A DNA stretch of 64,000 nucleotides from NCBI GenBank assembly GCA_032158295.1, contig CM063253.1, forward strand, positions 3,193,001 through 3,257,000, in the 5' to 3' direction. This document shows, one piece after another, positions 24,652 through 63,370 of the stretch. A program made the position numbers and the translations under genes. The stretch is from Pycnopodia helianthoides (lineage: Eukaryota; Echinodermata; Asteroidea; Forcipulatida; Asteriidae). Under the pieces are notes generated by a model. That model had not been told where the DNA came from, did no database searches, and saw only the letters and a list, made by a program, of their open reading frames with translations. How positions within the stretch are numbered: the stretch's first letter is position 1; each line of letters starts with the position of its first letter.

Positions 24652-25238
24652 CTCAAGGCACCACAAATATAGCAACGACTGGTGCCACAAGGTACCACAA
24701 ATACAGCAACGGCTGGTGCCACAAGGTACCACAAATACAGCAACGGCTGGTGCCACAAGGTACCACAACTGTAGCAACGGCTGGTGCCACAAGGTACCAC
24801 AACTATGGCAACGGCTGGTGCCACAAGGTACCACAACTATAGCAACAGCTGGTGCCACAAGGTACCACAAGTACCACAACTGTAGCAACGGCTGGTGCCA
24901 CAAGGTACCACAAATACAGCAACGGCTGGTGCCACAAGGTACCACAAATACAGCAACGGCTGGTGCCACAAGGTACCACAACTGTAGCAACGGCTGGTGG
25001 CACAAGGTACCACAACTGTAGCAACGGCTGGTGCCACAAGGTACCACAACTATAGCAACGGCTGGTGCCACAATGTACCACAAATACAGCAAAGGCTGGT
25101 GCCACAAGGAACCACAAATACAGCAACGGCTGGTGCCACAAGGTACCACAATTATAACAACGGCTGGTGCCACAAGGTACCACAAATACAGCAACGGCTG
25201 GTGCCACAAGGTACCACAAATACGGCAACGGCTGGTGC
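24652..25238 (+). repeat. 34-bp minisatellite, about 17 copies
   Basis: The unit is close to GGTGCCACAAGGTACCACAA followed by (A/C)TA(C/T)AGCAACGGCT, with a GGTACC in nearly every copy. One unit has an extra GTACCACAA near 24870. Because 34 is not a multiple of three, any single open frame implies that all three frames on that strand are open. This produces long meaningless frames on both strands. Confidence 0.95.
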
Positions 25239-42129: not shown

Positions 42130-43077
42130 ATGTCGACTTTATCCCCGTACATCCCGGAACCACACCCGGCACCAAACATTGCTGCCTTTGACTCGGCCCC
42201 CGGACTCAATTCCCCCATGGATGAATTGGAGGCGAAGGGCACCACGAACGCAGGAGAGACAGAAGAGCTGGCCAATATGACCAGCATGGTGGCGCTGATG
42301 CCTAGTGTCAGCGTCATCACACCCATCACCATGATGGGAATAGGGCTATTCGGTAATGTCATAGCCCTGGGGATATACAACTGCTCGTGTACTGCTCATC
42401 GCAAACTCCCTTTCTACGGCCTACTCCACGGGCTGCTCTGGACTAACATCTTCGGATACATAGCCGTGTACCCGCTCATAATCGCCGCCTATTTCAACGG
42501 TTTGCAATGGATCGGCGGGAGTCACACGTGCAACTTTCAAGGACTGTCTCTCCTGAGCTTCGGCATGTCCACCTCGCTGCTGGTCGGCTGCATGGGGTTC
42601 GAACGCTTCCTGGCCGTGTGTAAGCCCCAGCTCCACGCCAAGCGAGTGGAGAGAAGGAAGATCCCCTATCTGATATTCTTAGTATGGGTGTTTGCTGTCT
42701 TCACAGCGTTCATGCCCATCGTGGGGTTCGGTGAGATGGTTCAGCACTATCCCAACACGTGGTGCTTCGTGAACTGGCGCCACCAACAGACCGTTGGTAA
42801 ACTGTACACCAGCATCCTCGCCGCTGAACTCTCCGGGGTGTTATTACTCGTCATCTCCTGCCTGGGATCCGTCGTTGGGATGACCGTGTTTAGAGCCATG
42901 TGTCTGAAAAATGGACGTCCCGGTGACATTGTGGAGGTGACCGGAACGGAGATCAGGCGCCTGTCTATTCGGACTGCCAGACGTCATGGGATTAGCCCTG
43001 CAATAACCTCAGTGTGGCTGACTGCGCATTACGTCTTTTTCGCCCTTGCGGTATTAATCTGTGTAATTCCAATTGTG
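42130..43077 (+). CDS. ptger4-like: Prostanoid (EP4-like) receptor GPCR, coding exon 1 (N-terminus to TM6)
   Basis: Encodes residues 1-316 of a rhodopsin-family GPCR, expected in the plasma membrane. The start ATG follows an in-frame TAG at 42091. There is a long extracellular N-terminus with a sequon at N49. TM1 lies at about 60-84 with GN at 75-76, and TM2 carries TNIFG at 105-109. C134 and C212 can form the usual disulfide. The TM3 end reads ERF at 158-160. Extracellular loop 2 has HYPNTWCF at 206-213, close to the prostanoid-receptor YPGTWCF signature. TM6 ends LICVIPIV, very like EP4 LICSIPLV. The exon ends in phase 0 at a GTG/gtaagt donor, and vertebrate prostanoid receptor genes also have an intron at the end of TM6. 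By family, EP4 couples PGE2 to cAMP signalling, but D2.50 is replaced by Asn here, so ligand and signalling are not certain. The prostanoid-type assignment is strong; the exact subtype is inference. Confidence 0.9.
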
Positions 43078-43323
43078 GTAAGTTAGCTGTTTCAAGTTTT
43101 CCAACAGATACTTGTAATGATGACGTCATGGTTTAGCTTCCGACAATTGTACAGATAACAATAGTTTACCATTCTTCTGCAAAGTGGTACACAAACTGTG
43201 ACGTCATCAGTACTGTTAAGTTTATTCTTCCAAAGGTTTGACGACAACTATAATTGTTTTACCTACGTATTCTCTGTAGCAATGGTTTGAGGGCTAATTT
43301 TGTTCTTTGAAGAACATATCTCG

Positions 43324-43640: not shown

Positions 43641-43847
43641 CCAGTTAACCGAGTTACCCTGACGGGAAGATCCAAACAGATAAACCAAACAAATAAACAA
43701 CAAAAACAGATTGAGATATGCAAAGAAAATACTGTACAGTGGTAAAACAGCAAACACAGAGCCAAGTCACTGCAGTGTAAACAATATGATGTTTCATTTG
43801 AAATGAGAATTCGCAGATTAACTTCCTCTCAATTGTTCTTCCACCAG

Positions 43848-44295
43848 TTGAGAATAATCCTGAATGTGTCGGGCCAGCCGGAGAATCATTTTGCAACCTT
43901 TTTAGCCATGGGCTACGCCGAGTGCTTCCCCGCCGCCGCCCCGTGGATTTACATGCTGTTTCACCGTCAGTTCTGGAAGCGGGTCTTACCGTGCTGCTTC
44001 TCCAAGAAGCTGACAAACTCCAACGGTATCCACGCCGTTAATTACTACCACCGCCCGGTATCGGGAGGGGACAATAACTCCGGTCCGGAGGACCACGAGG
44101 ACGGGAATGCGAACAGTATACTACCCAACAGTAACGGGGTGATACTATGAACACGTTTGGAGTTATGACCGAGGAGGGCAGCACGGCTGATATTCTGACA
44201 ATGGCTCGGAAGAGCACGCATTCGTTGAGGCAGGGGTCGGTTGGGGCGACGCCGTCTTGGCAGACGTCCGAGGAGGCGTCCAACTACAACAAAAG
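43848..44295 (+). CDS. ptger4-like: EP4-like receptor, coding exon 2 (loop 3, TM7, start of C-tail), with apparent frameshift
   Basis: The acceptor is a pyrimidine-rich tract ending ccaccag at 43847, and the exon continues exon 1 in phase 0. Across the junction the protein reads IPIV then LRIILNVSGQPE, matching the EP4 TM6-loop 3 region. TM7 ends FPAAAPWIYMLF, where family members have DPW(V/I)Y, so position 7.49 is Ala. The family Arg 7.40 that binds the prostaglandin carboxylate is replaced by Gly. The receptor frame stops at 44148-44150, giving 416 residues. However, another frame stays open from there to a good donor (AAAAG/gtgggt at 44295) and joins exon 3 in phase. Adding one G to the run at 44136-44139 makes one continuous frame of 542 residues. 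I read this as a one-base assembly or real deletion. Confidence 0.8.
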
Positions 44296-46026: not shown

Positions 46027-46883
46027 ATGGTGACAGCTCATCTTAAAGATGAATCGTAGTGCTTCGTGAAGTCGATCCCAGTGTAGTGTATGGATTCAAA
46101 GTGCGAGTGGCAAGGGGCGCCCTCAATATTTATATTTAAGCCAGTCGTGTTGATTCATCCCACTTTCGTGGATGGTTGAATACCCTATTCTGAGTCATTA
46201 TTTCCTTTTCCTAGTTTTGTTTTAGGATTCAAATTATTTTACAGCTTGTAGTGCAGGATAATCAGACGTTATTCTGCAGCATTGTTTAAGATAAGTGAGT
46301 TTCTTCACTACACGGTGCTGGACCACCGTTTGATGTCTTAACAACTTTTCATTGTAAAAAAAATAAAACCAACATCGAATATCGAATGAATTAATTTTGA
46401 TATTCAATTAAACTAAATAATGTATCTTTTGGGGACAAAGAGTATGCACTGAACAGTTATTGAGACTTTACTGCGAGACTGGTTGTTCCATTGATGTCCA
46501 TTGTTCGGTCAGAACAACAGAGGACGCTAAACTGTAATGGACGACTTTGTTTCTTCACAGCTTGGACAGGCAAGTTGTTGGGTTTTTTGTGTACAAACAA
46601 AATCAGAACTACGATTACTTAATTATTACACAGTACACTACTTGAATGAAAGATAAAAAGAAATGATTGTATCTTTCAAAATTGTACTTTAAGTTCATTT
46701 TGTGAAGGTAGTGGTTGAGAGATGTGAAAATAAAATATATTTAAATTCTTTGAATCAAAGTATAATTATTGTATTTTGTGATTCATTTTGGGGCATTTTA
46801 TCGAACTGAATAATTTCTCTACCTAGTACACTAAAGTGCTTGATTGGATTAAAGAAGCAGAGGAGTTTTTATTCGGTTTCATT
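46027..46883. other. Intergenic stretch after the receptor gene
   Basis: AT-rich, with no coding frame or repeat match. Confidence 0.45.
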
Positions 46884-47235
46884 CAAACTTGCTGCACGAA
46901 TGATGAATTGGTTCTCAAATCATGCAGAAAGAGAGAAAATGATTTTTCTTCAAAAAAAGCCTGAAACGAAATTAAAGTATTTATAGTTTCCCACGCCCGT
47001 TGAGTTTCTGCTAAAAAAATGACAGCGCAGAGGAACTTTTTATGAAAACCGTAAATGATCAAACTTGCTGCACGAATGATGAATTGGTTCTCAAATCATG
47101 CAGAAAGAGAGAAAATGATTTTTCTTCAAAAAAAGCCTGAAACGAAATTAAAGTATTTATAGTATCCCACGCCCGTTGAGTTTCTGCTAAAAAAATGACA
47201 GCGCAGAGGAACTTTTTATGAAAACCGTAAATGAT
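46884..47235 (+). repeat. Recent 176-bp tandem duplication
   Basis: Two head-to-tail copies (46884-47059 and 47060-47235) differ by a single base that I can see (ATAGTTTCCC against ATAGTATCCC). The duplication must be young or recently homogenised. Confidence 0.92.
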
Positions 47236-47583
47236 CATCGATGGAGTTGTCGCATGATGACTGGGGTTGTCGACCCCCCCCCCCCCGAGATGCAACTGGT
47301 CTGCAACGTTTATACCAAAAACTATTTTTTCCTTAATTACTCATACATTTTTAAGCAAAAAAAAAGGTGAAACCCTTTAAATTCTATCCTCATCAGACAG
47401 GCCCGATTGACACTGCCTATGATGACCCTGTATGTAGGCAGTATGACTCATATTCTCCAGTTTAAATATAAAACGCTGTTTATATAGTATAGGGAATGTA
47501 CAAAAAATCTGTGGTGTCGCAGTGTAAAAACAGAATAATTACCCCCCCCCCCACACACACACACGTGTGTAAACACCTGCAAT

Positions 47584-48752: not shown

Positions 48753-50666
48753 ATGGCGAGTGATGCGATAACGCCTCCTAAGTCAGTTCCAGCTGGTACA
48801 ATCGGGGTATGGTGCAACCACCACCAATCGAACACTATTATTACCCAAACCAACCCCGGTATACAACGACCGAACATCAGTTCAGGAGGAACCATGGCCA
48901 CCTCCAACTCGTCCAATCCATCGGCAGAGCAGTCCATGGGACTGATGAGCCCACGACCGGGCCGTAAGCTTCGCCTGGCTGTTGCCGACGACGGGGAACG
49001 ACTACGGTCGACAAGCCCCCACTCTCCACGGAAGCCACGGACATCAAAGTCACCGAGCAGAGACAGCAGTTTGGGTTACGTCTCTGATAGCCCACCAAGA
49101 CGTCCGAAATACAAATCATCATCCCTCGAAGATGAACCGCCATCACACGTTAAAGGATCTTTTGCATCAGCACTAAGGTACCCATTGCAGCTAAGGACAA
49201 AAAACAGCGCACCCGTGTCAATTCCAAAGATTGTCTCTTCAGACGACTCGCCTAAACCCGGTCGAGTTAGGGTAAGGCATGTTGATCTTCGTTCCAGTTC
49301 CATGACCAGATTGGACGCCTCCAGTCCACTGAGTTCTCCTAAGCCTCCCCGAGCTCCCAGATGGGGTAAGTCTTTGAGTTGGTCCACAGACTCTGAAGAA
49401 GACTCCCCGAGATCAGCTACACCCCTGCCCCCAGTCTCCTCATCGCCGGAGAAAGATTCTCCAATCAGCTCCCGGAATGGAGCGTCTGAAACTAACAACA
49501 AACTGGTCAACCATAATGGAGGGAAACAACTTTCCGAGGTGTCCTCGCGGGGCAAGTCATCTCAACCATCACCAAAGACATCCCCGAGGTCCATTCTAAA
49601 AAAGAATGCCTCTCTTGAAAAAGAAGGGTCTCCTGAATCCGAGCGCGGGAAAACCGAGAGGAAATCCCGCAAGAAACACTCAAGTTCAAAGACTCACAAG
49701 AGGGTGCTCCAAAACCAGCCCTCATTCAGTGGCGCTAGTGATAATGACGACGACGAGAACGATGTATTCCCGTCGTCTTTCTCCCTACCAGAGCGTGCCC
49801 CGCTCCCGGACACCTCGTCCATATTCCAGCAAGCTCTTACCAACCTGAGCAGCCGGCAGTCAAGTCTGAGCAGCGACCCGGGCGACCTCCACGTCCGCCG
49901 GTCATCTCTTGTCAACAGCTTCTTAGACCTTACCGACAGCAACTCATCGCAGATTCCTCCTCCGAATGGGATAGACTGTCTGTTCGATGTGATGTCAACA
50001 GTATCAGAAAACGACAACAACAACACGGACAAAGAGCCAAGCTTGACAAAATCTTTACTTCTGAAAGTTTCAAACTGGACCGGCAGATCTCGGAAAAAAT
50101 CAGCCCCATCGAAGATGGTGACCGAAGACCAGACACCCCCGAGCACTTCCACCACACAAACACCGTCAAGACGCAGGGTAGTTTCGGAGATAAGACCCCC
50201 TCGACGAGAACTTCTGGAAGGGGTGGACAATCCCCGTCCCAAGACAATCACAGATTCAACGAGTGAATCAAGTGAGGTATCCTCAAGCTCCGGCCAGACT
50301 TACGTCACTGACATCCCCCGTCCTCTGATCAGTAAAAGAGGTATGAATTATATTATGAGCTTCATCTCGAAGGCAACTGTCTCTGATGCTGCCCCGGGAT
50401 TGAGCACGAACCACACGGCCCATCAGCCAGGGAGGGAGAGCGCAATGTTTCCGGAAATACACAACTCCAGCTCATCTCGGCGAGCCAGGGACAGACGGGA
50501 CTCTTTAAGGGCAATCCAGCACGTTATAAATGAAGGTAACACGTTAGGGGACACGACTGAGATTACGAGTTTTGATGATTTGAAAAATTGTAGGTATATT
50601 CGAGAATTTAAACCGACTGGAAAAGAGACTCGACATGCTAAACGTACAGCATACCACGAATGGTAA
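48753..50666 (+). CDS. Paralogue 1: Ser/Pro/Arg-rich, probably disordered protein of unknown function (637 aa)
   Basis: This is one open reading frame with ATG in AACAATGG context, preceded by an in-frame TGA at 48738. Paralogue 2 begins at the position of M48 here (48894, ACCATGG), so residues 1-47 are an extension and translation may start at either ATG. The protein is rich in Ser, Pro and Arg, with many SP, SPxK/R and RRSS-type sites. I see no signal peptide, membrane span or known fold. Blocks shared with paralogue 2 are at about 48-100, 188-203, 338-395, 470-497, 522-539 and 565-637. The last block contains FDDLKNCRYIREF (607-619) and ends YHEW. A basic segment at 299-317 (KTERKSRKKHSSSKTHKR) is missing from paralogue 2 and may act as a nuclear localisation signal. 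Family and function are not recognised; coding status is strongly supported by conservation. Confidence 0.88.
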   Translation: MASDAITPPKSVPAGTIGVWCNHHQSNTIITQTNPGIQRPNISSGGTMATSNSSNPSAEQSMGLMSPRPGRKLRLAVADDGERLRSTSPHSPRKPRTSKSPSRDSSLGYVSDSPPRRPKYKSSSLEDEPPSHVKGSFASALRYPLQLRTKNSAPVSIPKIVSSDDSPKPGRVRVRHVDLRSSSMTRLDASSPLSSPKPPRAPRWGKSLSWSTDSEEDSPRSATPLPPVSSSPEKDSPISSRNGASETNNKLVNHNGGKQLSEVSSRGKSSQPSPKTSPRSILKKNASLEKEGSPESERGKTERKSRKKHSSSKTHKRVLQNQPSFSGASDNDDDENDVFPSSFSLPERAPLPDTSSIFQQALTNLSSRQSSLSSDPGDLHVRRSSLVNSFLDLTDSNSSQIPPPNGIDCLFDVMSTVSENDNNNTDKEPSLTKSLLLKVSNWTGRSRKKSAPSKMVTEDQTPPSTSTTQTPSRRRVVSEIRPPRRELLEGVDNPRPKTITDSTSESSEVSSSSGQTYVTDIPRPLISKRGMNYIMSFISKATVSDAAPGLSTNHTAHQPGRESAMFPEIHNSSSSRRARDRRDSLRAIQHVINEGNTLGDTTEITSFDDLKNCRYIREFKPTGKETRHAKRTAYHEW

Positions 50667-50697
50667 TTCTGGATAATTACTTTGTCACTAAACTGTA

Positions 50698-50703
50698 AAT
50701 AAA
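50698..50703 (+). promoter_or_regulatory. Candidate polyadenylation signal of paralogue 1
   Basis: An AATAAA hexamer lies 32 bases after the stop codon. Paralogue 2 has lost it by base changes although the surrounding 3' sequence is conserved, so the signal actually used may lie further downstream. Confidence 0.3.
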
Positions 50704-50712
50704 CGTTTTGAA

Positions 50713-50727
50713 TCACACGTAGTGTGA
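50713..50727 (+). other. Short hairpin in the 3' flank of paralogue 1, conserved in paralogue 2
   Basis: TCACAC-GTA-GTGTGA makes a perfect 6-bp stem with a 3-base loop. It is identical in the 3' flank of paralogue 2 (56113-56127), at the same distance from the stop. It sits in a block of about 200 bases of shared 3' sequence, so conservation may reflect only the age of the duplication. Confidence 0.5.
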
Positions 50728-51109
50728 ACATAAATTGAACGATTTCTTTGAAAACTATATCAGTATTATTAACAATTGTCATGACAACTTTCCTGTATAG
50801 AAAGATGGGATATGAATCCCAACAAGCTGTAATCTAAAATGCCAAAAACTACTTCCAATATTTAAAATTATTTTGTGCCAATGTAAAATTTTTTGCTATT
50901 GCTATTGCACATGGATTGCTAGGTTTAGAAAACTGTATGTAGTGTTAACGGGTTATCAATTTTGTGTTACTTTTTTGAAAACACTGAAAGGTATTTTGAT
51001 TTTCTTTCGATGTTTATTTCGATGACTATGTCGATACACACGTCTGATTTAGGTTGGTTTGTGTTAATTGTACAATGTATTTCTTCAATTTCAATCGATA
51101 GTTACAATC

Positions 51110-51250
51110 TTACTTAAAAGGGAGTGCCGGACATTGGTAAGATTGAATATAAATGTACACACATTTGCACATAGCTACATGGTTTGGGTGAAATATTTCT
51201 GCCTGAAATGCTATAGTTGTTGTGATATGAGTAAGCAATTTAGTTTTGAT
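51110..51250 (+). mobile_element. Truncated MITE fragment related to the 45685 element
   Basis: It shares ACATTGGTAAGATTGAA and AATATTTCTGCCTGAAATGCTAT with the 45685 element and family A. No right end is visible. Confidence 0.45.
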
Positions 51251-51270
51251 CTTGCGAGTCCAAAACCTGT

Positions 51271-51405
51271 GCCCAATTTCATAAAGCTGCTCAAGCACAA
51301 TGCTTACCAGAATATGGTTACCAGTCAAACTAGCATCTCACATGTACTTTAAATGACTGGTATCCTGCTACTTTTTGTTGAGCAGATATGTTTTAAGCAC
51401 TATTT
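51271..51405 (+). mobile_element. Repeat family F, partial copy
   Basis: GCCCAATTTCATAAAGCTGC lies at the left, with ACTGGTATCCTGCT inside. It is followed at once by repeat C copy 2. Confidence 0.6.
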
Positions 51406-51412
51406 TCAGCTT

Positions 51413-51805
51413 AAAACCCTCAATCGAGGCACGTTGTCAACACATGCTTCAATATTTTAATATTTCCATTGTATTAACCATAATTAGTGTACACAGGGTG
51501 TGGCAATCAACATGGGACAGTGGTTTGGTTAGAAAGGACAAGACAAAATTCTGCCAGCATCCTTTTTTTGTAAGAAATTGGTCTGTCAATTGTCTGTCAA
51601 TTGTCAAACGTAGTTCAACCAAATTATAAAAATTAATTAATTAAGCAAACAAATAGGCTGAAATTTACACAGGCAATACCTGGACATGTAAACAACAAAC
51701 TAAGATAAAGAAATAATTGGGGAAAATTGCAAAACAAAAATTTGAACCTACGGAAAAAGCTTGGAGGCGTGTGAGTCACGTTTGTCTTAAGTTAGGTGCC
51801 GCGTT
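51413..51805 (+). repeat. Dispersed repeat family C, copy 2
   Basis: It is collinear with copies 1 and 3 from AAAACCCTCAATCGAGG to CTACGGAAAAAGCTTGGAGG. It lies 3' of paralogue 1. Confidence 0.75.
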
Positions 51806-52684
51806 TGAGTAGCCTCGATATCAAGGCTGTGTAGACAAGTACTCCGCCTAAAACCAACAGGAGTTGCATCGCATTCGTGCGGCTGTGGTTATTCACATTT
51901 TTAGCTCTAAAGTAAGCAAACTATTACACAGCCTTGCAATCAAGGCTACGTTTGAGGGAAGCGGCTCCATGCAAAAAGGGGCACTGATGTTTGAAAACAG
52001 TGAAAACATATCAGGTTTTTTAACAAACTATTTTCGTGTGGCATCGATGCAAAATTGAGCTTAAACATACACATGTTTGATAATTCATGTATGATGGGTC
52101 AAATACAATGCTGTTACTGGTATTTGACAATCAAATAATGTCCGTGTGTTGTCAAGAGACCTAGTGTTTATAAAGTGTACCTTCAGATAATTCGTTTACA
52201 TCAACCCTTGAAAGTGTTAATCATACAGGATAGTGTTTTGAATTCGAGAAGTCGTAGCTTATGCACTGCAAAAATTGTTTTCAACATCTACATCTACATA
52301 ATGTATAAAAAGAAAAAGTATACAGAACTCGTAACACAATAGTGTATAGTGTTAATAAAAATAAATGAAGAGCACGATTGGTTTAAATAATTTCCTTCTG
52401 ACTTAGATAGAACGATAACCTTCACATTTCAACGGAATAAAACGCGTAGTAAATGATCTCTTTGCATTCACTATGGTGTTAATCGATACCAGTGATCGTA
52501 TATTGCGTAATTTTTAATCACATGCTTTTACCGATCGATTCTTCCACCCGTGTCTCTCTTTGTGGCAAAAAAATTGATAAACACACGGGCCTTTGCCTTT
52601 CATTACTCTTTAATACACACACGATGGTGTGATCCTTATTATTCATTGTGACGTTATCGTACAATGCAAGTAGAAGCCCATGCA
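51806..52684. other. Intergenic stretch between paralogues 1 and 2
   Basis: Only AT-rich sequence. 52844-53224 contains C and G runs with GGGGGCAAGTGCCCCC near 52901-52916. Confidence 0.45.
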
Positions 52685-52843
52685 GGGCCCAATTTCATAG
52701 AGCTGCTTTAACACAAAAAGTAGCTAAGCGCAACAAAATTTTGCTCACCAGAATACTGTTACCAGCCATATGTAAATCTGTGGCTGGTATCCTGCTTATT
52801 TGTGCTAAGCATAATTCCCTGCTTAAGCAGCTCTATGTGGCCC
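52685..52843 (+). mobile_element. Repeat family F, complete copy
   Basis: The ends GGGCCCAATTTCATAGAGCT and AGCTCTATGTGGCCC are inverted. The interior contains AAAGTAGCTAAGCGCAACAA and GGCTGGTATCCTGCTTA. Confidence 0.7.
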
Positions 52844-53224
52844 TGGTGTGAAGAACATAAATTCGATCGACATGCAGTGGCGTAAAGCGGGAAGGGGGTG
52901 GGGGCAAGTGCCCCCAATGTGATGCCCCCCCCCCACCGCCTCATTTGATATCTAGACTTTTCAGTGAATTAAAAATTACCGGAAGAGAATTTACATTATA
53001 TAAGCTTAAAAGTAGTAATTTCAATGTGATTAAACTATTTTCTAATACACGCAGACACTGTAGTTGTTTTTAACCTCCACGTCAATGTTCGTTATTATTA
53101 TTGTAAACATGTACAGGACAAATCCATGAAGAGAGCGCTGAAAAAGAAAAATTGGTCAGAAGTGCCCACGGGAAATAAATGGTTCACCCGTCGTGCCCCA
53201 TGAAAATGTTACCCTATAGTTTCG

Positions 53225-54450
53225 TCGTTGTCAACGTGAGTTTACCAGTGGCGTAATTGTTTAGCCTTGGTTTGCTAAACTTGTTTGGGCAAAAAAAAAA
53301 ATTGTTTACGAAGTGTATGACGAAATGATACAAGGAAGTGTGTGCACCCCTCCCGACACACTGTTTTGATAGGTCTATGAAAAGCACATTCATAAAATCT
53401 CTAATATTGTAAACATGAACTTCGATTACAGTACACGCAACTGATGTGTAGAACACAAAAAACAAACAGAGAATCGCTTTTTTGTCGTTATGTACAACAT
53501 CACAAAGCAAATAGAGGGCGCTGTTTGTCGTTTGGAATTACTTTGGTTGGATTTCACTAATCTAAAAACTCAGGACGGATTTCAGAATCTTCAAATTCAA
53601 TGAAAGGAGTTCAAAAAATTATAGACACACTGCAAAGATATTTTCCAGATGCCAAGAAGTCATATTTGCACAAAATGTTTGCACTCACGAGAGGCATATC
53701 ATTTGAGGGTGTCTTCATTGTATGTCACGGGATAGAGAGTCAGCGAAAGAGCACTCGTCGTCACTTTCAAAGCAAATTGATCTTGTCTAGCAAATATTTG
53801 CAAATAAATCGACTACATTGTAGACTATTCGGCTTTACATAGTCGCACCTCTAGCATGAGATAGACCCCCCATAAGATGCGTCATATTCATTCAACCTTG
53901 TTGTATGACAGACTTATTGGTATACATGTTGTTACTTGTATTGGTTGTGTTCAAACCTTAGGTATTGATAAATACCAATAAAAACATAAAATAATCGATA
54001 TTACAAATTACCCAACACTGAGGAGAGGTCGTCACTCAGATTCTTAAAACAGTGTGACCTTTTTGTGTGGAATCTGCAAAAAAATACATTATTAATACAA
54101 AAAAAAACATGGTTCACCCCATTGCTGCCGGACTATATCTTGAGCAAGTTAAAACATTTCCATAGAAAACAGCTATATAAATATAGGCCTACATATTCAC
54201 AGAAAACGGTAAGCCAAAACAGTGCTGTTTTTTAACGGGAAAGCTTATTGCGTTGCCCTGTATTGCATGCTTGAGTTCGTAAGAGGAAACATTAAGCATG
54301 ACATATCAACGGTTTTCCGAATGTGAGCTACAAAGGTGACGTAATTTCTGCTAATATTTTTCGATGACCAGGTAACCCAAGGTGATCAAACAACAACAAG
54401 CAAGTCATATTCAGCTTTGAATACCATATAGCAACAATAAGGAACAATGC
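53225..54450 (+). repeat. Segmental duplication unit: 5' flank of paralogue 2
   Basis: This matches 58330-59830, the 5' flank of paralogue 3, in the same order. Shared blocks include GAGTTTACCAGTGG, the GACGAAATG..AAGGAAGTGTGT segment, CACAAAGCAA.AGAGGGCGCTGT, GAGAGTCAGCG.AAGA, GCAAATTGAT.TTGT, TTGCGTTGCCCTGT and TTTGAATACCATA. Short open frames at 53600-53842 and 59279-59497 share the ESQRK block but have diverged with indels, so I treat this as non-coding flank. Confidence 0.7.
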
Positions 54451-54626
54451 ATGAACGTGTGAACATGGAACTGGTCGTTGTGATTTTTTCTTTTGTCAGA
54501 CCAAAGAATTGAAGAATTGAATTGTAAATTCTCCTTCAAACGGTAAATGGCCTGTGTGCTAAAATAGTGATAATCACATGCCATTAACAGCCACGGTGAC
54601 TACCGAACAACAGTTAAGGATGAAAC

Positions 54627-56066
54627 ATGGCTACCTCCAAGTCATCCAAACCATCGGCAGAGCAGTCGGTGCGACTGAGTCCACGATCGGGCCGTAAGTT
54701 TCGCCTGGCTGCTGCCGACGAAGGGGAACGACTCCGGTCGACAAGCCCTCACTCCCAAAGGAAACCACGCACATCAAAGTCACTGAGCGGCAGCATAAGT
54801 GTGGATTCTACCAGCAGACGTTCGAAATACAACAAATCATCATCCATCGGAGATGAACCGCCACCACACAGCCTACCCGTCACAACTCCAAAGATGGTGC
54901 CTCTAAACAACTCGTCCACACCCGCTCGGCTTAGGGTAAAACCGAGTGCTGTTCAGTCCCGCTCCACGGCGAGATTGGACGCCTCCAGTCCACTGAGTCC
55001 TCCTAAGCCTCCCCGAGCTCCGAGATTGGGTAAGACTGTAAGTTGGTCTGAAGGAGACTCCCTGAGATCAACCAAGCCTTTGCCTCCCGTCTCCACATCG
55101 CCAAAAAAGGATGGTCCAATCAGTTCTCGGAATGCAGTGCCAGAAACTAACGATAGTTTCGCTGGTGATAATGACGAGAAGGATGCATTCCCGTCGTCAT
55201 TCTATCTACCAGAGCGTGCCCCGCTCCCGGACACCTCGTCCATATTCCAGCAAGCTCTTACCAACCTGAACAGACGGCATTCAAGTCTGAGCAGCGACCC
55301 GGGCGACCTCCACGTCCGCCGGTCATCTCTTGTCAACAGCTTCTTAAACCTTACCGATAACAACTCGCCCACAACTCTTTCTGGTGGGATAGACTGTCTG
55401 ATCGAAGTGATGTCAACAGTAACAGAAAACGACAACGACACGGACAATGAGCCAAGACTGTCGAAATCTGTACTTCTGGAAGTTTCAAACTGCACCGGCA
55501 AATCTCGGAAAACATCAGCCCCATCGAAGTTGGGGACCGTGGACCAAGCACCCCTGGGTTCTCCCTCCACTCCTACACCGTCAAGACGCAGGGCAGTTTC
55601 GGAGATAAAAGCCCCTCGACGAGAACTTCTGGAAGGGGTGGACAATCCCCGTCCTATTATTACCGATTCGAGGAGTGAATCTAGCGAGGTAACCTCAAGC
55701 TCCATCACTGAAATTCCCCTTCCTTTGATCAGTAAAAGATCAATGCATTATATTATGAACTTCATCTCGAATGCAACTGCCTCTAGCATTTCTCCGGGAA
55801 TAAAAAGCACCACACCCAAACGCCGACCAACGAAGATGAAAACAGTGCTGCCGAAAATACACAACTCCGGTTCGGCCCAGCGAGCCAGGGATAGACGGGA
55901 CTCGTTAAAGGCAATCCAGCAGATTATAAATGAAGGGAACACGTTGGGGGACACGACCGAGATAACCAGTTTTGATGATTTAAGAAATTGTAGGTACATT
56001 CGGGACTTTCAACCGACTGGAAAAGAGGCTCGAGCTGCTAAACGTACAACATACCACGAATGGTAA
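54627..56066 (+). CDS. Paralogue 2: Ser/Pro/Arg-rich, probably disordered protein of unknown function (479 aa)
   Basis: This is one open reading frame with ATG in AACATGG context right after an in-frame TGA at 54621. It aligns with paralogue 1 from M48 onward: MATSxSSxPSAEQS at the start, ARLDASSPLSPPKPPRAPR, and a block of nearly 60 residues from FPSSF to LTD including IFQQALTNL and HVRRSSLVNSFL. SRRRAVSEIKAPRRELLEG follows, then a C-terminal block of about 70 residues with FDDLRNCRYIRDF (449-461) ending YHEW. Compared with paralogue 1 it lacks the N-terminal extension and an internal segment of about 85 residues with the basic cluster. No domain is recognised. It is Ser/Pro-rich and probably disordered. 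AATAAA hexamers at 56728 and 56757 are distant candidate 3' ends. Confidence 0.88.
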   Translation: MATSKSSKPSAEQSVRLSPRSGRKFRLAAADEGERLRSTSPHSQRKPRTSKSLSGSISVDSTSRRSKYNKSSSIGDEPPPHSLPVTTPKMVPLNNSSTPARLRVKPSAVQSRSTARLDASSPLSPPKPPRAPRLGKTVSWSEGDSLRSTKPLPPVSTSPKKDGPISSRNAVPETNDSFAGDNDEKDAFPSSFYLPERAPLPDTSSIFQQALTNLNRRHSSLSSDPGDLHVRRSSLVNSFLNLTDNNSPTTLSGGIDCLIEVMSTVTENDNDTDNEPRLSKSVLLEVSNCTGKSRKTSAPSKLGTVDQAPLGSPSTPTPSRRRAVSEIKAPRRELLEGVDNPRPIITDSRSESSEVTSSSITEIPLPLISKRSMHYIMNFISNATASSISPGIKSTTPKRRPTKMKTVLPKIHNSGSAQRARDRRDSLKAIQQIINEGNTLGDTTEITSFDDLRNCRYIRDFQPTGKEARAAKRTTYHEW

Positions 56067-56112
56067 TTCCGGATAATTACTTTGTCACTAAACTGTAATT
56101 ACACGTTTTGAA

Positions 56113-56127
56113 TCACACGTAGTGTGA
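56113..56127 (+). other. Conserved 3'-flank hairpin of paralogue 2
   Basis: The same TCACAC-GTA-GTGTGA hairpin occurs as after paralogue 1, again 47 bases past the stop codon, inside shared 3' sequence. Confidence 0.5.
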
Positions 56128-56329
56128 ACACAAAGGGAATGGTTTCTTTGTAAATTATATCAATATTATCAATAATTTTCATGACAACTTTCCTGTATAA
56201 TATAGAAAGATGGGATTTGATCCCCAACGAGCTGTAATCTAAAATGCCACCAACTGCTTCAAACAGTTTGTTTAAGTTTGTTGATTTTTACTTTGACGTT
56301 GATTTCGACAATTATGTCTTCGCACTAAT

Positions 56330-57093
56330 TGCTACGTTTGTTTTGTGCCAAAAATGTCATGAAAAATGTAGAATTTATCTTACTTTATTTTGTAACATAC
56401 CCATAGTGTGCGTTCAGATACTGTGGTGATCTGTTTAATACAAAAATAAGGGTGGAGATTGTTTTCCCAAGAATTGCGATGCAGTTTGCTCTACACAATT
56501 TGGATTTATATTTTAAAATCTGGAGCGGTTATGTCCACGCAGGAAGAATAATCCGTAATTGGAATACACAATCTGGGAAACGTTTCTTGAAACGTTTCTC
56601 AGATTGAAATGCTTTTGAATACCTCTTTCTAAAACCACATTCTTTTGAAGGGAATTGTTTCTCAAAATATTATACATTATCAACAGCTTTAAAATCTGTT
56701 TAAATTACATTTTTACAAAATTCCTGAAATAAAAATACCCAGAGCAAGTTGTTATTAATAAACTTTCAATTTATTTATAATACAAATAATTAAAACAAAA
56801 TTAACACTGAAACAAAATTAAAACTTGGGACGAGGATGCTTATTTTTAGAAACCCCATTTTGCCAATCACGTTCGAAATTGTGCATCCATCACATAGGTT
56901 TAATGACAACATGACCGTCAGTTGGGCAAAATTCATAATTTTTTTACAAGTATAACCGGAAACGGTGGTCGAGTCTTATTCTCAGTTTTTCAACGTTATT
57001 TTGTTGAATTGATTTTACTTTCATATTGTTTATCACTTAGTATTACATTCCCAACAACATACGTGTATATAATTTTCATGGCCATAAACTACG
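56330..57093. other. Intergenic stretch after paralogue 2
   Basis: Apart from family E copy 4 and two AATAAA hexamers it is AT-rich and plain. Confidence 0.45.
56505..56700 (+). mobile_element. Foldback MITE family E, partial copy 4
   Basis: The central part only: TCTGGAGCGGTTATGTCCAC through the paired AACGTTTCT hairpin to TTATCAACAGC. Both ends are missing. Confidence 0.65.
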
Positions 57094-57260
57094 TTAAAGG
57101 AACATTACAGAATTGGTAAGAAAAAAACTTTAAAATATACCTTTTGATCACAGATTTACATAAAACTTACACGGTCTAATGATGATGATAGTAGAAAACA
57201 TCCCTTGAAATATTTCTGACTGAAATGCCATATTTGATGAGAAATGAATAAACTAATTTT
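57094..57260 (+). mobile_element. Foldback MITE family A, truncated copy 8
   Basis: The left end with TTAA and about 165 bases match the family, up to AATAAACTAATTTT. The right half is missing. Confidence 0.8.
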
Positions 57261-57584
57261 GAATACGCACGTGACTTGGACAGTCAATTGCTTTTTGCCA
57301 CTAAGGGACTTGAAATATTTGATGTACTAAAACAAAAAACTAGCATGCAGTGCTCGTCATTATAGTGTAAATAAAATGAAGAGCACTATATTTGTATATA
57401 AGTTCCTCATAAAAAGATAAACTTCACAATTCAATGTTATAGCTGTGGGAATGAAAAATTTACTGAGAAATAAATAAGCTCTTTTAATGCGTCATCTATC
57501 TGACGTCTTAATGCATTTGCTATGACTGTTATTTTAGGGTACCAGTATTCGAGTTGTATGTGACTTTTTAACTGTATCAAAGGC

Positions 57585-58182
57585 TTAAAGGCAGTGGATA
57601 TTTTGGTAATTACTCAAGAAATACATTACCATAAAGACTTATATGGGTTTTGAGGCATTGCATGGTGAGGTATTAATATATATTCGGTTTGCGGTAACAT
57701 CATGTGTAAAAAATATCTACTTGCTGTGTAGATTTGTTCTTTAGAGAACTTGTCTTGCTATTTATTCTACTACCGCGGAGTAGATTTTCGGAATTCGGGA
57801 GACTTCTCAGTTCTGAAAAGAACTGTCATGCAATATTAACTACTACCTGGGCGGGAGGTAGGAAATCGGCCTGGACTACTACTTTAGCTTTGTGGATCGG
57901 GGGGACTTCTCGTAATTAACTGCACTGCCGCGGAAGACTTACTTACTTGGTAAGGAGCACCTGTGAGCTGCTGATAGTATAAAACTTTGTGAGAAACGAC
58001 TCCCCCTGAAGTAATGCAGTTTTTGAGAAAGAGCTAATTCCTCACTAAAATATTTGGATCTGAAAAAGGTTTCAGGCATGATGCCTTTCTCAACATGGTT
58101 TATACTATCGACAGCAGCAGGTGCTTCTCACCAATGGTCATAGATTTTTGGAGTATTAACAAATCAAGACCCTACCTATTAA
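57585..58182 (-). mobile_element. Foldback MITE family B, copy 7, split by a family D insertion
   Basis: Family B sequence runs 57585-57633, breaks, and resumes at about 57948-58182, with TTAA at both outer ends. The interruption is a family D element. AGACTTA occurs at both edges and may be the target duplication. Confidence 0.7.
57641..57947 (+). mobile_element. Repeat family D, copy 2, nested in a family B element
   Basis: It matches the reverse complement of 19935-20165 in several blocks: GGGTTTT.GAGGCAT, TATATTCGGTTTG, TATTTATTCTA, GCGGAGTAGATTT and GGAATTCGGGAGACT. No coding capacity; class unknown. Confidence 0.6.
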
Positions 58183-58385
58183 AGTTTCTTTGTGGTTAAT
58201 TGAATAACACAGGGTTGTTACCCGTCACGAATATTATGTGCAATACACACAATGGCAACGTCCCGATTGTTCATGTTGACGTCAATGTACCGGGAGCCCT
58301 GATGTATGAGAACATTAATTCGTTTCAATAGGAGTTTACCAGTGGGGTTAGTTTGGCGTAGTTTGTTGGCCTTGGTTTGCCCATG

Positions 58386-58772
58386 GAGGAAGTTTTCCAA
58401 GTTTGCCAAACTTGTTTCCCAATGGGGGGCTAAATGACTTGTTTTCCAATGGGGGGCTAAATGACTTGTTTTCCAAGTTGGGGGCTAAATGACTTGTTTT
58501 CCAAGTTGGGGGCTAAATGACTTGTTTTCCAAGTTGGGGGCTAAATGACTTGTTTTCCAATGGGGGCTAAATGACTTGTTTTCCAATGGGGGCTAAATGA
58601 CTTGTTTTCCAATGGGGGCCAAATTACTTGTTTTCCAATGGGGGCTAAATGACTTGTTTTCCAATGAGGGCTAAATGACTTGTTTCCCAATGGGGGCTAA
58701 ATGACTTGTTTTCCAATGGTGGCTAAATTAATTGTGGGTGCTAAAAGACATGTTTTCCAATGGGGGCAAAAC
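58386..58772 (+). repeat. 26-28 bp minisatellite, about 14 copies
   Basis: The unit is close to GGGGGCTAAATGACTTGTTT followed by TCCAATG, with variants CCAAGTTG and CCAATG at the join. It lies in the duplicated 5' flank of paralogue 3. The paralogue 2 flank has only TTGTTTGGGCAAAA at the same spot, so the array expanded after duplication. Confidence 0.9.
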
Positions 58773-58984
58773 AGAAACTGTTTGTAAAGTGTGACGAAAT
58801 GTTAACAAGGAAGTGTGTACATCCGCTCATATTCTTGATAGGTCTACGAAAACAACATCCATAAAATTTATATTTATTTTTGTAAACACTGAACTACAAT
58901 CTGAAGATTTGATCGTTTTTATCCTTGCTTCACAAAGCAACAGAGGGCGCTGTAAATCGCTTTGAATCAGAGCTGTGCATGGGC

Positions 58985-59130
58985 CAACAACGTTTTGCCT
59001 CAGCTACAGCTAGCTACGACTGTTGCTAAGGGTGCTAATTGCTACTGTCATTCTATACTTCAATACATGATGACAGGGAAATCAAGCCGTAGCCGTAGCT
59101 GTATAGCCGCTAATTCGGACGCGGCCTTAG
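58985..59130. mobile_element. Foldback element with GCCGTAGCCG arms, copy 2
   Basis: The same loop (CTACGACTGTTGCTA, ATACATGATGACAG) and right arm (AAGCCGTAGCCGTAGCTG) as 14085-14225. It is inserted in the duplicated flank of paralogue 3. Confidence 0.65.
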
Positions 59131-59830
59131 TGTTGGATTTTGCTAATCTAAACCCAGACGCAACATAAATGAATATTACGATGAAATGGGTTTAAAGGCT
59201 TAGACAGACTAAGATGATGCTTCCTAGAACAGCTGAAAAGTCGTACACTAAATATTTGCACACACGGGATGTATAACATTGAATCTGCATTACAATGTCA
59301 CGGAGGTAGAAAGTCAGCGGAAGACCGTCCATCGTGACTTTTCAAAGCAAATTGATTTTGTTCAACAAATATTTAGAAAATGGATCATAGACTACAATAG
59401 GCGCAGCTTCTCCTCTGACACCCAAGATGCCCGTCATATCAATGCAATCTTATTGTACGGCTCGTTTGTTGGTAAATGTTGTCTGAGCAAGTTTTGAAAC
59501 TTGTTTTCTTCGAAGTAATTATTTAGGACCGCATGTTCACAGAAGTCAATAAACCACTTTACGCCGTTACCGGGAAAGTTTTTGCGTTGCCCTGTTTATC
59601 TTCACGCTTGACTCCTCACGGGGGACGGGGGGGGGGGGGGGGAGGGGGAGTTCAACGGTTTCAAGCTGAAGGGCAATTCAGTTGCATACAACTTTTGTTT
59701 ACCAGGTAACCAAGGTGACAAAACAACAAAACACAAGTCATGTTTAAACTGCTTTGAATACCATAAAGCAGCGACAATAAAGCTAATTGTGCGTGATTGT
59801 AGAGGGTATATACGAGTGACTCGAGAAAGG

Positions 59831-60955
59831 TTATTTTTACTGAGCTTTCGGAAAAGGAAAATTAACTTTTAGAAGTTTTATTTATTTCAACTAGACCAAA
59901 GAACTATTTATAGAGAATCACAGGATTGCAGGTCATGCAATCCGGTCTGAGTTGTTTATCGGTACTAGACTTTGAAAGTTCATTGACTTATCATTATTTT
60001 TTTTCATATCTTTACACTAATGCTGTAACACCACCGGCACAGTCAACTATACCTCCATAGTTTTCTAGATATGCTAAGCAGAAATATGATTTCAATCAGA
60101 AGCTAAGCAAAAAGTAGCTGGCAGGGAACCATGTGAAAGACAAAAAATTATCCATAAACAAATTCTGAGCTCTGATTTTTGCTAAGCAGCTATGTGGACA
60201 TTTTCGTTTGCTCGATTAACACGCAGAAAGAATATGCGTTAAAAAAACTGACATTAGTCAATTTCAGTGATAGGGTTCAATACAAGTCCCCTTTTACAAA
60301 GATTTCATGAAATTAAAGATCTGTTTATAGCTAAACATTTACAAGAACATCGTAAATTTACACACAACTGGGTGTCTACAAAATTGAGGTGTACAAATCA
60401 CATTTGGTCACGCTCTTTCGCACGGTTGTGCCATTGTGCCGAAAGAGTAAACTAACACAAAACCCCCTAAACCCGCCTCGAACCCCCCCCCCAAAAAAAA
60501 GCCTGGCCTTGATGTTGTTCTATTCAAATGCTGTTTTTCTACAAAAAAAGGCCACAACACAACCACAATCTACAGATCTGGAGATAGAGCTGACGAAATT
60601 TCCTTAAAATAGCGTTGAACTGTACTTTCCATGTGTTTTTCCGGATAGATCTGGGTTTGCAAGAAACTGCATTTCATCACTCTCAGACACTTGAGTTCGT
60701 TGTCACAAATAATGCTCAACACTGGAACTCTTAATTGACAGTTTAATTCTACGAAGGAGCTTTTGTTTACCGACCGGTGAGGTCCGGTGGGTGAACTTTC
60801 CCCAACAGTCTGCTGACTTTGGCATCAGCACAGGTTTTTTTCTGCACCAAATCACTCAATGGTGGATCGGGACTTCGGATTCTTAAAGGGAGGCTTGTAG
60901 TCGCTTAAAACTTGGTGCCGAGCATATTCAACCATATACACCCATCGTGATCAGT
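59831..60955 (+). other. Region before paralogue 3
   Basis: It contains a degraded F element and a C/A-rich tract (60483-60500). It could hold an upstream exon of paralogue 3, but I find no convincing one. Confidence 0.35.
60073..60197 (+). mobile_element. Repeat family F, degraded copy
   Basis: It has CTAAGCAAAAAGTAGCTGGC and GCTAAGCAGCTATGTGGAC. Weak match. Confidence 0.35.
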
Positions 60956-62463
60956 ATGAGTTGGTCAGCTAGCAGTCTCTCCCCGGGGACGAGGGAAACG
61001 AGGAGGATACGCGTAGCGGTAGCGGCAGCGTTGACAGCCCAGTCCTCGTTCACCTCGTCGTCACCAGTGCCGCACCGAGTGAGACCTTCTTAAAGCTTAC
61101 CGCCAGCGGGGTCTTCAAAGATGAGACCGATGAGGAGCACCTGCAGGATGTCGACGAGCCGGATTCAAACTACGGTGTTAACTTTCCGGTTGGGGACAAA
61201 AGCCAATGGGAGACAGTGAGGGAAAATCTGTCATATATCACACCCAAAATTTGGCCTCAAATCGGCTTGTCGGATGACACGAGTGATGCCATGCTCAAGC
61301 AAGACGCACATCAGCAAGAAACTGCTTCGCAAGATAGCAGCGAGTTCAAAACAAATGAAACCTCGGATGCGACTGCTTCCAAGACCTCAGATCAACAGAA
61401 ACTCACCACGAAATCCACTGACCCATCTTCGTTCATCATCCCAGAGGTTAGTCTCATCACAACAACCAAGAGCACTTTGGCCAGGCCAAAGATGAGAAAT
61501 AACAATTTAAGAGTTGTGGCATTATCCAAGGAGCAAACTAAGAAGGCGTCGCCTCAACCAAGGCGACCAACTGGAAGCAAATTACCAGCAACACCTGCTT
61601 GGCCTTCAGTGGAGCAAGCAGTACACCGTGAACGGGTGAACTCTCTACTGATGCCAGCTAGCCCCAGGGCGACACTCGGAAAAATCGGTCCTCCGAGTGT
61701 CACAGCACAGGCCACCGGTTCAACACCTCGAAAGCCCACTACTACATCAAAGGACAACATCTCCGTGACGCGCAAAATAAGCCCACCACACGCCCCTCCC
61801 AGTAAGCCCAGAACATCTGTGCCAAACTTGGCTTCAACTCACCCAAGAGCTGATGACGGCATTTCTCATGGGAAAATCAGTCCGCCTAAACTACTGCAAC
61901 CGAAGACAACCCCACCCCGAAAGATCACCCCACCCCACAAGCAAACCACACCCAGTCAACTTGAGAAACTACCGTCGCGGAGAAAGAGCTTGCCTGATGT
62001 TTATAATCGCTCTCAAACAAGCAGCCCTAAAGGTAAAAACATCACAGCAATGAACCACCCCGTCGATAGTCCCAATTTACTCCCTCGTCAAGTCCCGCCG
62101 AGACGCAAGATATCAGAGCCTTGTTTCCCCTCTTCCCAACCGATATCGACCTCGCCCTCTTCACTCTCTGACCGCCAACGAGGAGGGATTTTCTCCGATC
62201 CGCGTTACAACCCCATTATCGTCACCCCAAAGACGACCACGGCTGCTGGTGGGTCAGATTTGGCGAGGAAGTACGCCGACATGTGGAGAGGCTCCGTGGC
62301 AAATCGCCCCCTCGCCGGACTGTCTTCCCCGGACTCCGAAGGATCCGTTTATAGCAAGACACTGTCAACCTTCGACGACGCCGAGTATGAAAAATTGAAA
62401 AACTGTCGGTACATTCGAAGAGCTGCTTGGAGTATGGACGATGATGTTCCTAATGCTTTTTAG
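60956..62463 (+). CDS. Paralogue 3: divergent Pro/Ser/Thr-rich family member (about 502 aa), apparent frameshift near the start
   Basis: A frame open from 60973 to the stop at 62461 encodes an acidic N-terminal part (DEGNEEDTRSGSGS), then a long Pro/Ser/Thr/Lys-rich region with repeated ISPP, TPPRK and PPRRK motifs. It ends with YEKLKNCRYIRR, 14 residues before the C-terminus. That motif matches the C-terminal LKNCRYIR of paralogues 1 and 2, and the 5' flank is homologous to that of paralogue 2, so it is a third family member. The frame has no ATG until 61291. An ATG with A at -3 at 60956 lies in another frame that would join it if one base were added in the CCCCGGGG at 60981-60988. SRRKSLPDV and RRKISEP resemble 14-3-3 or basophilic-kinase sites (inference). 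Alternatives are an upstream exon or a start at 61291. Confidence 0.75.
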
Positions 62464-62490: not shown

Positions 62491-62905
62491 AAAAACCCTC
62501 AAACGAGGTACGTTGTCAGCACAAATGATTCCATATTATAATATTTCCATTGTCTTGACCACATCATACACACTGGTCAGCTCATATGCCGCAATATCGT
62601 AAGAAGCACACGTCCTAGAGGGGGTGTCAATCAACATAAAACTCTGCCAGCCTCTTTTGTTTACAAAATCAGTCTGTAAATTATTGTCTGTTAATTGTCA
62701 ATAGTAGATGAACCACTTTATAAAAAATAATTAATTAAGCTAACAAGTAGGCTGAAATTACCCAGGCATTACCTGGACAATGTAAATAACACACCTAGAT
62801 AAAGAAATCGTTGAAAACAAAAAAAAACTCTTTGAACCTACGGAAAAACAACTTGGAGGCATGTACTGATAACATAAGTTAAGTTTGTCCAAATGAGGTG
62901 CTGCA
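62491..62905 (+). repeat. Dispersed repeat family C, copy 3
   Basis: It begins only 28 bases after the stop of paralogue 3, so it would form most of that gene's 3' flank. It is collinear with the other two copies. Confidence 0.75.
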
Positions 62906-63021: not shown

Positions 63022-63370
63022 GGGTCAGAATTGACCCAGAATCCGGGTCCCAGGAGGCATGACCCATTTCTGGGTCAGGCTGACCCATTTCTGGGTCAAG
63101 CTGAGCCATTTTGGGGTCAAGCTGAGCCATTTCTGGGTCAGGCTGAGCCATTTCTGGGTCAGGCTGAGCCAGTTCTGGGTCAGGCTGAGCCATTTCTGGG
63201 TCGGGCTGACCCAGGCTGACCCAAGAAGAAGAAGAAAAAAAAGAAAAAGACTCAGATTCTACGTCAATTTTACTCAACTTTTGGTCAGTTTGAAACTGAC
63301 TCCGGGTCATACTGAGCCAAAAATGGGTCAGCATGGAGCCCGGAATCCAAGTCAGTACTGACCCGGGAGT
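63022..63370 (+). repeat. 21-bp minisatellite of alternating GGGTCA and TGACCC/TGAGCC half-sites
   Basis: The core units (63060-63215) follow CTGAGCCATTTCTGGGTCAGG. More scattered half-sites continue to 63364. The period is 7 codons, so both strands have periodic open frames. It lies about 600 bases after paralogue 3. Confidence 0.85.

What the first reader, a model, noticed from the sequence alone, without database searches (positions are those of the whole stretch)
48753..62463. Tandem family of three unrecognised disordered proteins sharing a C-terminal NCRYIR motif
Three same-strand single-exon genes encode Ser/Pro/Arg-rich proteins whose only feature common to all three is a short near-C-terminal motif, (F/Y)xxLxNCRYIR. 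In paralogues 1 and 2 it sits in a 70-residue conserved tail ending YHEW. In paralogue 3 nearly everything else has diverged, so the motif is the most constrained part and is likely the working element, such as a docking peptide or degron. I know no family with this signature.
Basis: partly seen in the sequence, partly recalled or inferred. Interest (0 to 1): 0.75.

Follow-up and report, generated by a model that had tools for sequence, protein, structure and literature searches.

The report
Starfish disordered proteins sharing C-terminal motif
Three neighbouring genes in what looks like a starfish genome encode floppy, uncharacterised proteins; two are tandem duplicates, the third looks like an older neighbour, and all share one short tail peptide that is probably a docking site for an unknown partner.

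Summary
Three same-strand coding frames (637, 479 and at least 390 aa) share only a near-C-terminal peptide, [FY]xxL[KR][NS]CRY[IL]R. An 8-residue identity as between genes 1 and 3 arose in 1 of 5000 shuffles; profile comparison finds this match alone (P 2.4e-4). Two database proteins keep it: a Patiria miniata protein auto-named 'unc-89-like' (like genes 1/2) and an unnamed ENA protein (like gene 3).

Corrections. Gene 3's coding frame starts upstream of 61291: a conserved block (APSETFLKLTxSGVF) lies at 61072-61116, and the 5' end is unresolved. Only genes 1 and 2 belong to the visible tandem duplication (units of about 5.5 kb); gene 3 lies outside it. The motif is the best-conserved stretch in family 1/2 but fifth in gene 3 against P0002. 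dN/dS of genes 1 vs 2 is 0.60 overall and 0.26 in the last 70 codons.

No Pfam family reaches its cut-off; models are mostly low-confidence. Best reading: phospho-regulated disordered adaptors, known here only from starfish-like sequence, with a C-terminal docking peptide; partner unknown. The window's own genome could not be searched (17 requests unanswered).

The parts
48753..50666 (+). Gene 1, single open frame, 637 aa; start matches the Patiria protein's start
54627..56066 (+). Gene 2, 479 aa; starts at the equivalent of gene 1's Met 48
60973..62463 (+). Gene 3, open frame of 496 aa; first ATG in this frame at 61291; true 5' end unresolved
60838..60897 (+). Possible N-terminal coding piece of gene 3, matching the N-terminus of P0002, separated from 60973 by in-frame stops
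50571..50603 (+). Motif in gene 1: FDDLKNCRYIR
55971..56003 (+). Motif in gene 2: FDDLRNCRYIR
62386..62418 (+). Motif in gene 3: YEKLKNCRYIR
61072..61116 (+). Best-conserved block of gene 3 against P0002 (APSETFLKLTASGVF)
61978..61995 (+). RRKSLP, RxxSxP site of gene 3, identical in P0002
62104..62121 (+). RKISEP, RxxSxP site of gene 3, identical in P0002
50091..50108 (+). RKKSAP, RxxSxP site of gene 1, kept in gene 2 and P0001
55506..55523 (+). RKTSAP, RxxSxP site of gene 2
48866..54440 (+). Tandem unit, copy 1 (gene 1 from codon 38, plus spacer)
54599..59780 (+). Tandem unit, copy 2 (gene 2 plus spacer); ends before gene 3

Best explanation
These are members of an uncharacterised family of intrinsically disordered adaptor proteins, so far seen only in starfish-like sequence. 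Shown: three long coding frames, two of them with a dN/dS below 1 against each other; mostly low-confidence, unstructured models; a short element [FY]xxL[KR][NS]CRY[IL]R 11-23 residues from the C-terminus, kept in two subfamilies that otherwise do not align; conserved basophilic phosphorylation-type sites, including RxxSxP sites of the kind that bind 14-3-3. Inferred: the C-terminal element is a docking peptide that folds on one partner shared by both subfamilies (its hydrophobic positions F/Y, L, C, I/L and its basic positions K/R, R, R each repeat every three residues), while phosphorylation of the disordered body, read by 14-3-3 or similar, switches the protein. Genes 1 and 2 arose by a tandem duplication of about 5.5 kb; gene 3 is an older neighbour, most likely an ancient paralogue.
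For: Motif in genes 1, 2, 3, P0001 and P0002, each near the C-terminus; above chance by profile (P 2.4e-4) and shuffles (1 of 5000). Mean pLDDT 43.6 (gene 2) and 40.2 (gene 3); helices in gene 2 at 370-385 and 415-437 (10-residue block means 70-73 within them) and short turns at 449-453 and 456-459 in the motif, and in gene 3 at 469-476 running into it. dN/dS 0.60 (bootstrap 0.46-0.78) overall, 0.26 (0.12-0.61) in the last 70 codons, 0.05 in 17 motif codons. RxxSxP: gene 3 has 4 vs 0.79 expected and P0002 5 vs 0.76, each reached in 0.2% of 500 shuffles; three aligned sites in gene 3/P0002 and one in all three of family 1/2; RRxS-type sites in excess in gene 2, gene 3 and P0002. Three-residue periodicity of the motif ranks 2 of 627, 1 of 469, 3 of 647, 3 of 486 and 7 of 496 windows. 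Tandem unit.
Against: Genes 1, 2 and P0001 each have one RxxSxP site, no more than chance; twelve patterns were tried. The structure alignments hold 3 and 2 sequences, so low pLDDT may partly reflect shallow input. The periodicity was examined after the motif was known, and its alpha-helical moment is unremarkable (ranks 63 to 406). Bootstrap intervals of tail and whole overlap. Whole-protein similarity of gene 3 to genes 1/2 is no better than shuffles. Only two outside sequences; no data on expression, partner or location.
Confidence: 0.55

Rival explanations
1. The peptide is an Atg8/GABARAP-binding (LIR) motif: the aromatic-x-x-Leu core with acidic residues before it docks on Atg8 proteins, making these proteins autophagy adaptors or cargo.
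For: An acid within four residues before [FY]xxL is present at the motif in 5 of 5 proteins. Reviews describe a W/F/Y-type core, acidic residues before it, and affinity-raising C-terminal helical extensions (PMC7564214, passages).
Against: Such patterns are common by chance: genes 1 and 2 have 2 and 1 against 1.42 and 1.02 expected; the excess in P0001 (6 vs 2.17) and gene 3 (6 vs 1.69, overlapping matches counted) lies mostly elsewhere or overlaps. The conserved extension is basic and holds Cys, whereas described helical extensions use polar or acidic residues.
Confidence: 0.12
2. The element is a degron: an E3 ligase reads the peptide or the C-terminal tail and sets protein turnover.
For: Position near the C-terminus in 5 of 5. 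D-box-like RxxLxx[LIVM] matches are in excess in gene 3 (3 vs 0.31) and P0002 (2 vs 0.26), two of them at aligned places, but outside the motif.
Against: The C-terminal residues themselves differ between subfamilies (YHEW, NAF, PSM), against a C-end degron. The motif matches no degron that I recall (recalled, no call).
Confidence: 0.12
3. Gene 3 is unrelated to genes 1/2; the shared peptide arose by convergence on the same docking partner.
For: Nothing but the motif aligns. Gene 3 lies outside the duplicated unit. The aromatic is F in one subfamily and Y in the other, with an extra acidic stretch in gene 3.
Against: Adjacent genes, same strand, similar composition, same near-C-terminal place, and an upstream FDD or FEE is shared as well.
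Confidence: 0.25
4. The invariant Cys among basic residues is a lipidated membrane anchor rather than a docking site.
For: Cys and flanking Arg invariant in 5 of 5.
Against: No amphipathic alpha-helical moment (ranks 63 to 406 of 469 to 647 windows) and mean hydrophobicity is negative.
Confidence: 0.08

Closest known systems
Patiria miniata 'muscle M-line assembly protein unc-89-like' (P0001, 657 aa)
   Same: Homologue of genes 1/2: 43% identity over 62% of gene 2, E 7.9e-56; same N-terminus as gene 1, same motif and YHEW end.
   Different: Motif reads RNCRYLR. The name looks automatic: Pfam finds 0 families in it at E up to 10, so no obscurin/UNC-89 domain.
P0002, unnamed 506-aa ENA protein
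   Same: Homologue of gene 3: E 5.4e-53 over 98% of the open frame, same conserved blocks and motif.
   Different: Motif reads KSCRYIR; source organism not given.
LIR/AIM peptides of autophagy adaptors
   Same: Aromatic-x-x-Leu core with acidic residues before it.
   Different: Conserved extension is basic and Cys-containing.
14-3-3 client proteins with RxxpSxP sites
   Same: Conserved RxxSxP sites, in excess in gene 3 and P0002 (motif as in PMC5607241, passages).
   Different: No evidence of phosphorylation or binding; no excess in genes 1, 2 or P0001.

Membership tests
UNC-89/obscurin | Ig/Fn3 repeats, RhoGEF-PH or kinase domains (recalled) | tested here: not met
   No such Pfam match at E up to 10 in genes 1-3, P0001 or P0002
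Any curated Pfam family | Score above the curated cut-off | tested here: not met
   Weak matches only, E 0.22 to 3.9, all below cut-off
Family of P0001 | Full-length similarity including the IFQQAL, DPGDLHxRRSSLV, SKRxMxYxMxFI, RDRRDS and motif blocks | tested here: met
   Met by genes 1 and 2; not met by gene 3 outside the motif
Family of P0002 | Full-length similarity including APSETFLKLTxSGVF, RRKSLP, PRRKISEPCF and SDPRYNPxIVT | tested here: met
   Met by gene 3
LIR (Atg8-interacting) peptides | Aromatic-x-x-aliphatic core with acidic N-terminal flank | tested here: inconclusive
   Present at the motif in 5 of 5, but common by chance
LIR (Atg8-interacting) peptides | Binding to Atg8/LC3/GABARAP | not testable with these tools
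   Needs a binding assay or complex prediction
14-3-3 clients | Conserved RxxSxP sites | tested here: inconclusive
   In excess and conserved in gene 3/P0002; one conserved site but no excess in genes 1, 2, P0001
14-3-3 clients | Phosphorylation-dependent binding | not testable with these tools
   Needs phosphoproteomics or pull-down
Tandem array of three | DNA homology of repeated units that includes all three genes | tested here: not met
   Found for genes 1 and 2 with their spacers only

The most novel reading that the evidence does not exclude
[FY]xxL[KR][NS]CRY[IL]R is an undescribed eukaryotic docking motif: the one element held while two sister families of disordered adaptors lost all other sequence resemblance, read by a single conserved partner through a three-residue repeat of hydrophobic and basic positions.
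Probability: 0.25. Interest if true: 0.55.

Novelty: new member of a known kind. Interest (0 to 1): 0.33.

Why it matters
Lineage-restricted disordered proteins are common and mostly uncharacterised. Here adjacent genes isolate one short peptide as the shared constrained element, which makes a small, cheap binding experiment possible and flags a misleading database name. If the motif names a new docking class it would be of wider use; as it stands it is a tidy but modest finding.

Tried and rejected
Relatives by domain or structure: Pfam, PDB sequences and Foldseek against PDB for the gene 2 model gave nothing I accept. One search gave one hit at E 1.6. The C-terminal profile A6 against 8vd6 'CAP REPEAT' reached E 6.7e-4, but as the sum of five weak matches in a repeat protein (best single match i-Evalue 9.1), so I reject it; the other hit of that call (E 1.8) is chance level. 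Foldseek gave two matches, E 4.9 and 9.9. The gene 3 model (mean pLDDT 40.2) was not searched.

Other collections: the genes 1/2 alignment in viral contigs (102 pattern matches, no relative), the gene 3 alignment in bacterial and archaeal genome contigs (113 pattern matches, no relative), gene 2 in phage records (no match). A starfish family is not expected there; the converse pairings were not run.

An intron between about 60897 and 60973 in gene 3 was considered. Reading the sequence by eye I saw no GT-AG pair that keeps the frame; no splice predictor was run. Frame changes in this copy or assembly error remain possible.

An amphipathic alpha-helix for the motif is not supported. APC/C C-box and W-acidic motifs were considered by eye from memory and dropped for lack of key residues (recalled, no call).

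Literature in the held library: 'NCRYIR', 'unc-89-like' with 'starfish', and 'echinoderm' with 'intrinsically disordered' and 'lineage-specific genes' returned 0 papers; 'Patiria miniata', 'orphan genes', 'disordered', two of three, returned 142, of which I saw the listing of 8 and passages of PMC9552553, which do not name these genes. The library lacks most subscription journals.
Full report
Where and what. The nearest named relative of genes 1/2 is a Patiria miniata protein, so I take the window as starfish; this is an inference. Upstream, the frame at 42094-43086 is a rhodopsin-family receptor (7tm_1, E 1.5e-18) closest among solved structures to prostaglandin E2 receptor EP4 (E 2.3e-25). 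The finding covers three + strand coding frames further downstream.

The observation. Genes 1 (48753-50666) and 2 (54627-56066) are 71% identical over aligned residues and end in YHEW. Gene 3 (61291-62463 from its first ATG) resembles them only at the motif. NCRYIR occurs once in each gene, and a six-frame scan of the window for it and near variants found no other place. The longest common peptide of genes 1 and 3 is LKNCRYIR; of 5000 shuffles of gene 3, 1 reached 8 residues, 21 reached 7 and 238 reached 6. Profile comparison of {gene 1, gene 2, P0001} with {gene 3, P0002} gives one alignment, over the motif, P 2.4e-4, probability 43%. BLASTP of genes 2 and 3 gives E 8e-4 on the motif. Whole-protein Smith-Waterman scores do not help: in the six pairs 119, 24, 72, 10, 102 and 37 of 200 shuffles reached the real score. 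The motif is therefore the only sequence evidence that gene 3 is kin to genes 1/2.

Relatives. Three searches of the 5.8-billion-protein collection were run. Gene 2 found one protein at E up to 10, P0001 (Patiria miniata, 657 aa, 43% identity over 62% of the query, E 7.9e-56; 7989 candidates scored). Gene 3's open frame found one, P0002 (506 aa, unnamed, ENA, E 5.4e-53, 98% of the query; 7994 scored). A bait made of motif stretches found the same two among 44 candidates (P0002 E 7.5e-6, P0001 E 0.14). How well this collection covers echinoderms is unknown to me, so 'starfish-restricted' is only as good as these searches. P0001's name, 'muscle M-line assembly protein unc-89-like', has no support from Pfam, which finds 0 families in it at E up to 10.

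Across these five sequences the motif is [FY]xxL[KR][NS]CRY[IL]R, ending 11-23 residues before the C-terminus. L, C, R, Y and the last R do not vary.

Gene structure. P0001 and gene 1 share their N-terminus (MANDAV...VIGVW and MASDAI...TIGVW), so gene 1's start is likely right and a single exon plausible. Gene 2 starts at the equivalent of gene 1's Met 48. Gene 3's frame is open from 60973, and this extension holds the best-conserved block against P0002 (14 of 16). Further upstream, 60838-60897 matches P0002's N-terminus (FSAPNHSMVDRDFGFL against FSVSNLSTMDQDFGAF), with stops between it and 60973 in the same frame. Gene 3 is longer than reported and its 5' end is unresolved.

History. Genes 1 and 2 share DNA homology from 48866/54599 (gene 1's codon 38) through the stop codons and, in seven blocks of 63-84% identity in the same order, through the spacers as far as 54440/59780; one of the seven (51189/57206) is also a dispersed repeat. 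I read this as a head-to-tail duplication of about 5.5 kb. Its right-hand end lies about 1.1 kb before gene 3's first recognisable coding piece, so gene 3 was not made by it. The stretch shared by the 3' flanks of genes 1 and 3 (51413-51772 and 62492-62864) recurs in part at 2190-2507, so it is a dispersed repeat and says nothing on gene kinship.

Selection. Genes 1 and 2 (478 codon pairs, Nei-Gojobori): dS 0.291, dN 0.174, ratio 0.60, bootstrap 0.46-0.78. The last 70 codons give 0.26 (0.12-0.61). In 17 motif codons there are 5 synonymous and 2 nonsynonymous differences. One stretch of 52 codons (343-394) has no synonymous difference in its 47 comparable codons (permutation P 0.011); gene conversion or a nucleotide-level constraint could explain it. 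No such test was possible for gene 3, since no DNA of P0002 was at hand.

Is the motif the most constrained part? In family 1/2 yes: DTTEIxSFDDLxNCRY has 14 of 16 invariant columns over three sequences, the top window, followed by windows with 13 and 12. In gene 3 against P0002 it is fifth (11 of 16), behind windows with 14, 13, 13 and 12. The motif is the one element shared between the subfamilies, but each subfamily has other constrained elements.

Structure. AlphaFold models are low-confidence: mean pLDDT 43.6 for gene 2 (3 sequences) and 40.2 for gene 3 (2 sequences). Gene 2 shows helices at 370-385 and 415-437; residues 371-380 and 421-440 are its only ten-residue blocks with means of 70 or more. 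Short helical turns follow at 449-453 and 456-459 in the motif. Gene 3 has a helix at 469-476 running into the motif. Foldseek with the gene 2 model found two matches, E 4.9 and 9.9.

Short motifs. RxxSxP, named as the primary 14-3-3 binding motif in PMC5607241 (passages), is over-represented in gene 3 (4 against 0.79) and P0002 (5 against 0.76), each reached in 0.2% of 500 shuffles; RRKSLP and RKISEP are identical in both. Genes 1, 2 and P0001 have one each, in the same aligned place, as many as chance gives. RRxS-type sites are in excess in gene 2, gene 3 and P0002, and three are kept in all of family 1/2. D-box-like RxxLxx[LIVM] sites are in excess in gene 3 (3 against 0.31) and P0002 (2 against 0.26). 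Twelve patterns were tried, so single results at 1-5% mean little.

In the motif the hydrophobic residues F/Y, L, C, I/L and the basic residues K/R, R, R each repeat every three positions. At 120 degrees the moment ranks 2 of 627, 1 of 469, 3 of 647, 3 of 486 and 7 of 496 windows; at 100 degrees it is unremarkable (hydrophobicity scale recalled). This was examined after the motif was known. The [FY]xxL with acids before it resembles an Atg8-binding core (PMC7564214, passages), but such patterns are common by chance and the conserved extension is basic, unlike the helical extensions described there.

Verdict. A real, selected, uncharacterised family of probably disordered proteins with a shared C-terminal docking-type peptide. 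Mechanism (inferred): phospho-regulated adaptor whose tail peptide folds on a common partner, unknown. The trio is a tandem pair plus one older neighbour. Interest is modest; the bolder reading, a new docking-motif class, is open and testable.

Noticed in passing
window 42094-43086: Coding piece of a rhodopsin-family receptor, best solved match prostaglandin E2 receptor EP4 (E 2.3e-25), upstream of the finding on the same strand. A frame at 43746-44150 may be a later exon by eye; Pfam gave no accepted match there.
   Followed up: partly
window 49779-49934 and the same codons of gene 2: 47 comparable codons without a synonymous difference between genes 1 and 2, while dS is about 0.29 overall (P 0.011): possible gene conversion or nucleotide-level constraint.
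   Followed up: partly
window 60838-60990: 5' end of gene 3 matches P0002's N-terminus but is interrupted by in-frame stops: unresolved intron, frame changes or assembly error.
   Followed up: partly
window 57094-57260, with copies near 3813, 5810, 19122, 20961, 21685, 27887 and 30784: A dispersed repeat of about 167 bp, 91-95% identical to the copy at 57094, with more diverged pieces at 45726 and 51189; no tRNA or Rfam family was found in the window.
   Followed up: no
window 51413-51772, 62492-62864, and parts at 2190-2507: Another dispersed repeat, one copy starting about 30 bp after gene 3's stop codon.
   Followed up: no
window 24649-25238, 29417-30173, 58410-58735, 63055-63213: Minisatellites with periods of 34, 83, 26 and 21 bp; the last gives ORFs on both strands that are probably spurious.
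   Followed up: no
window 46883-47237: Two 99%-identical tandem copies of a 176-bp unit upstream of gene 1.
   Followed up: no
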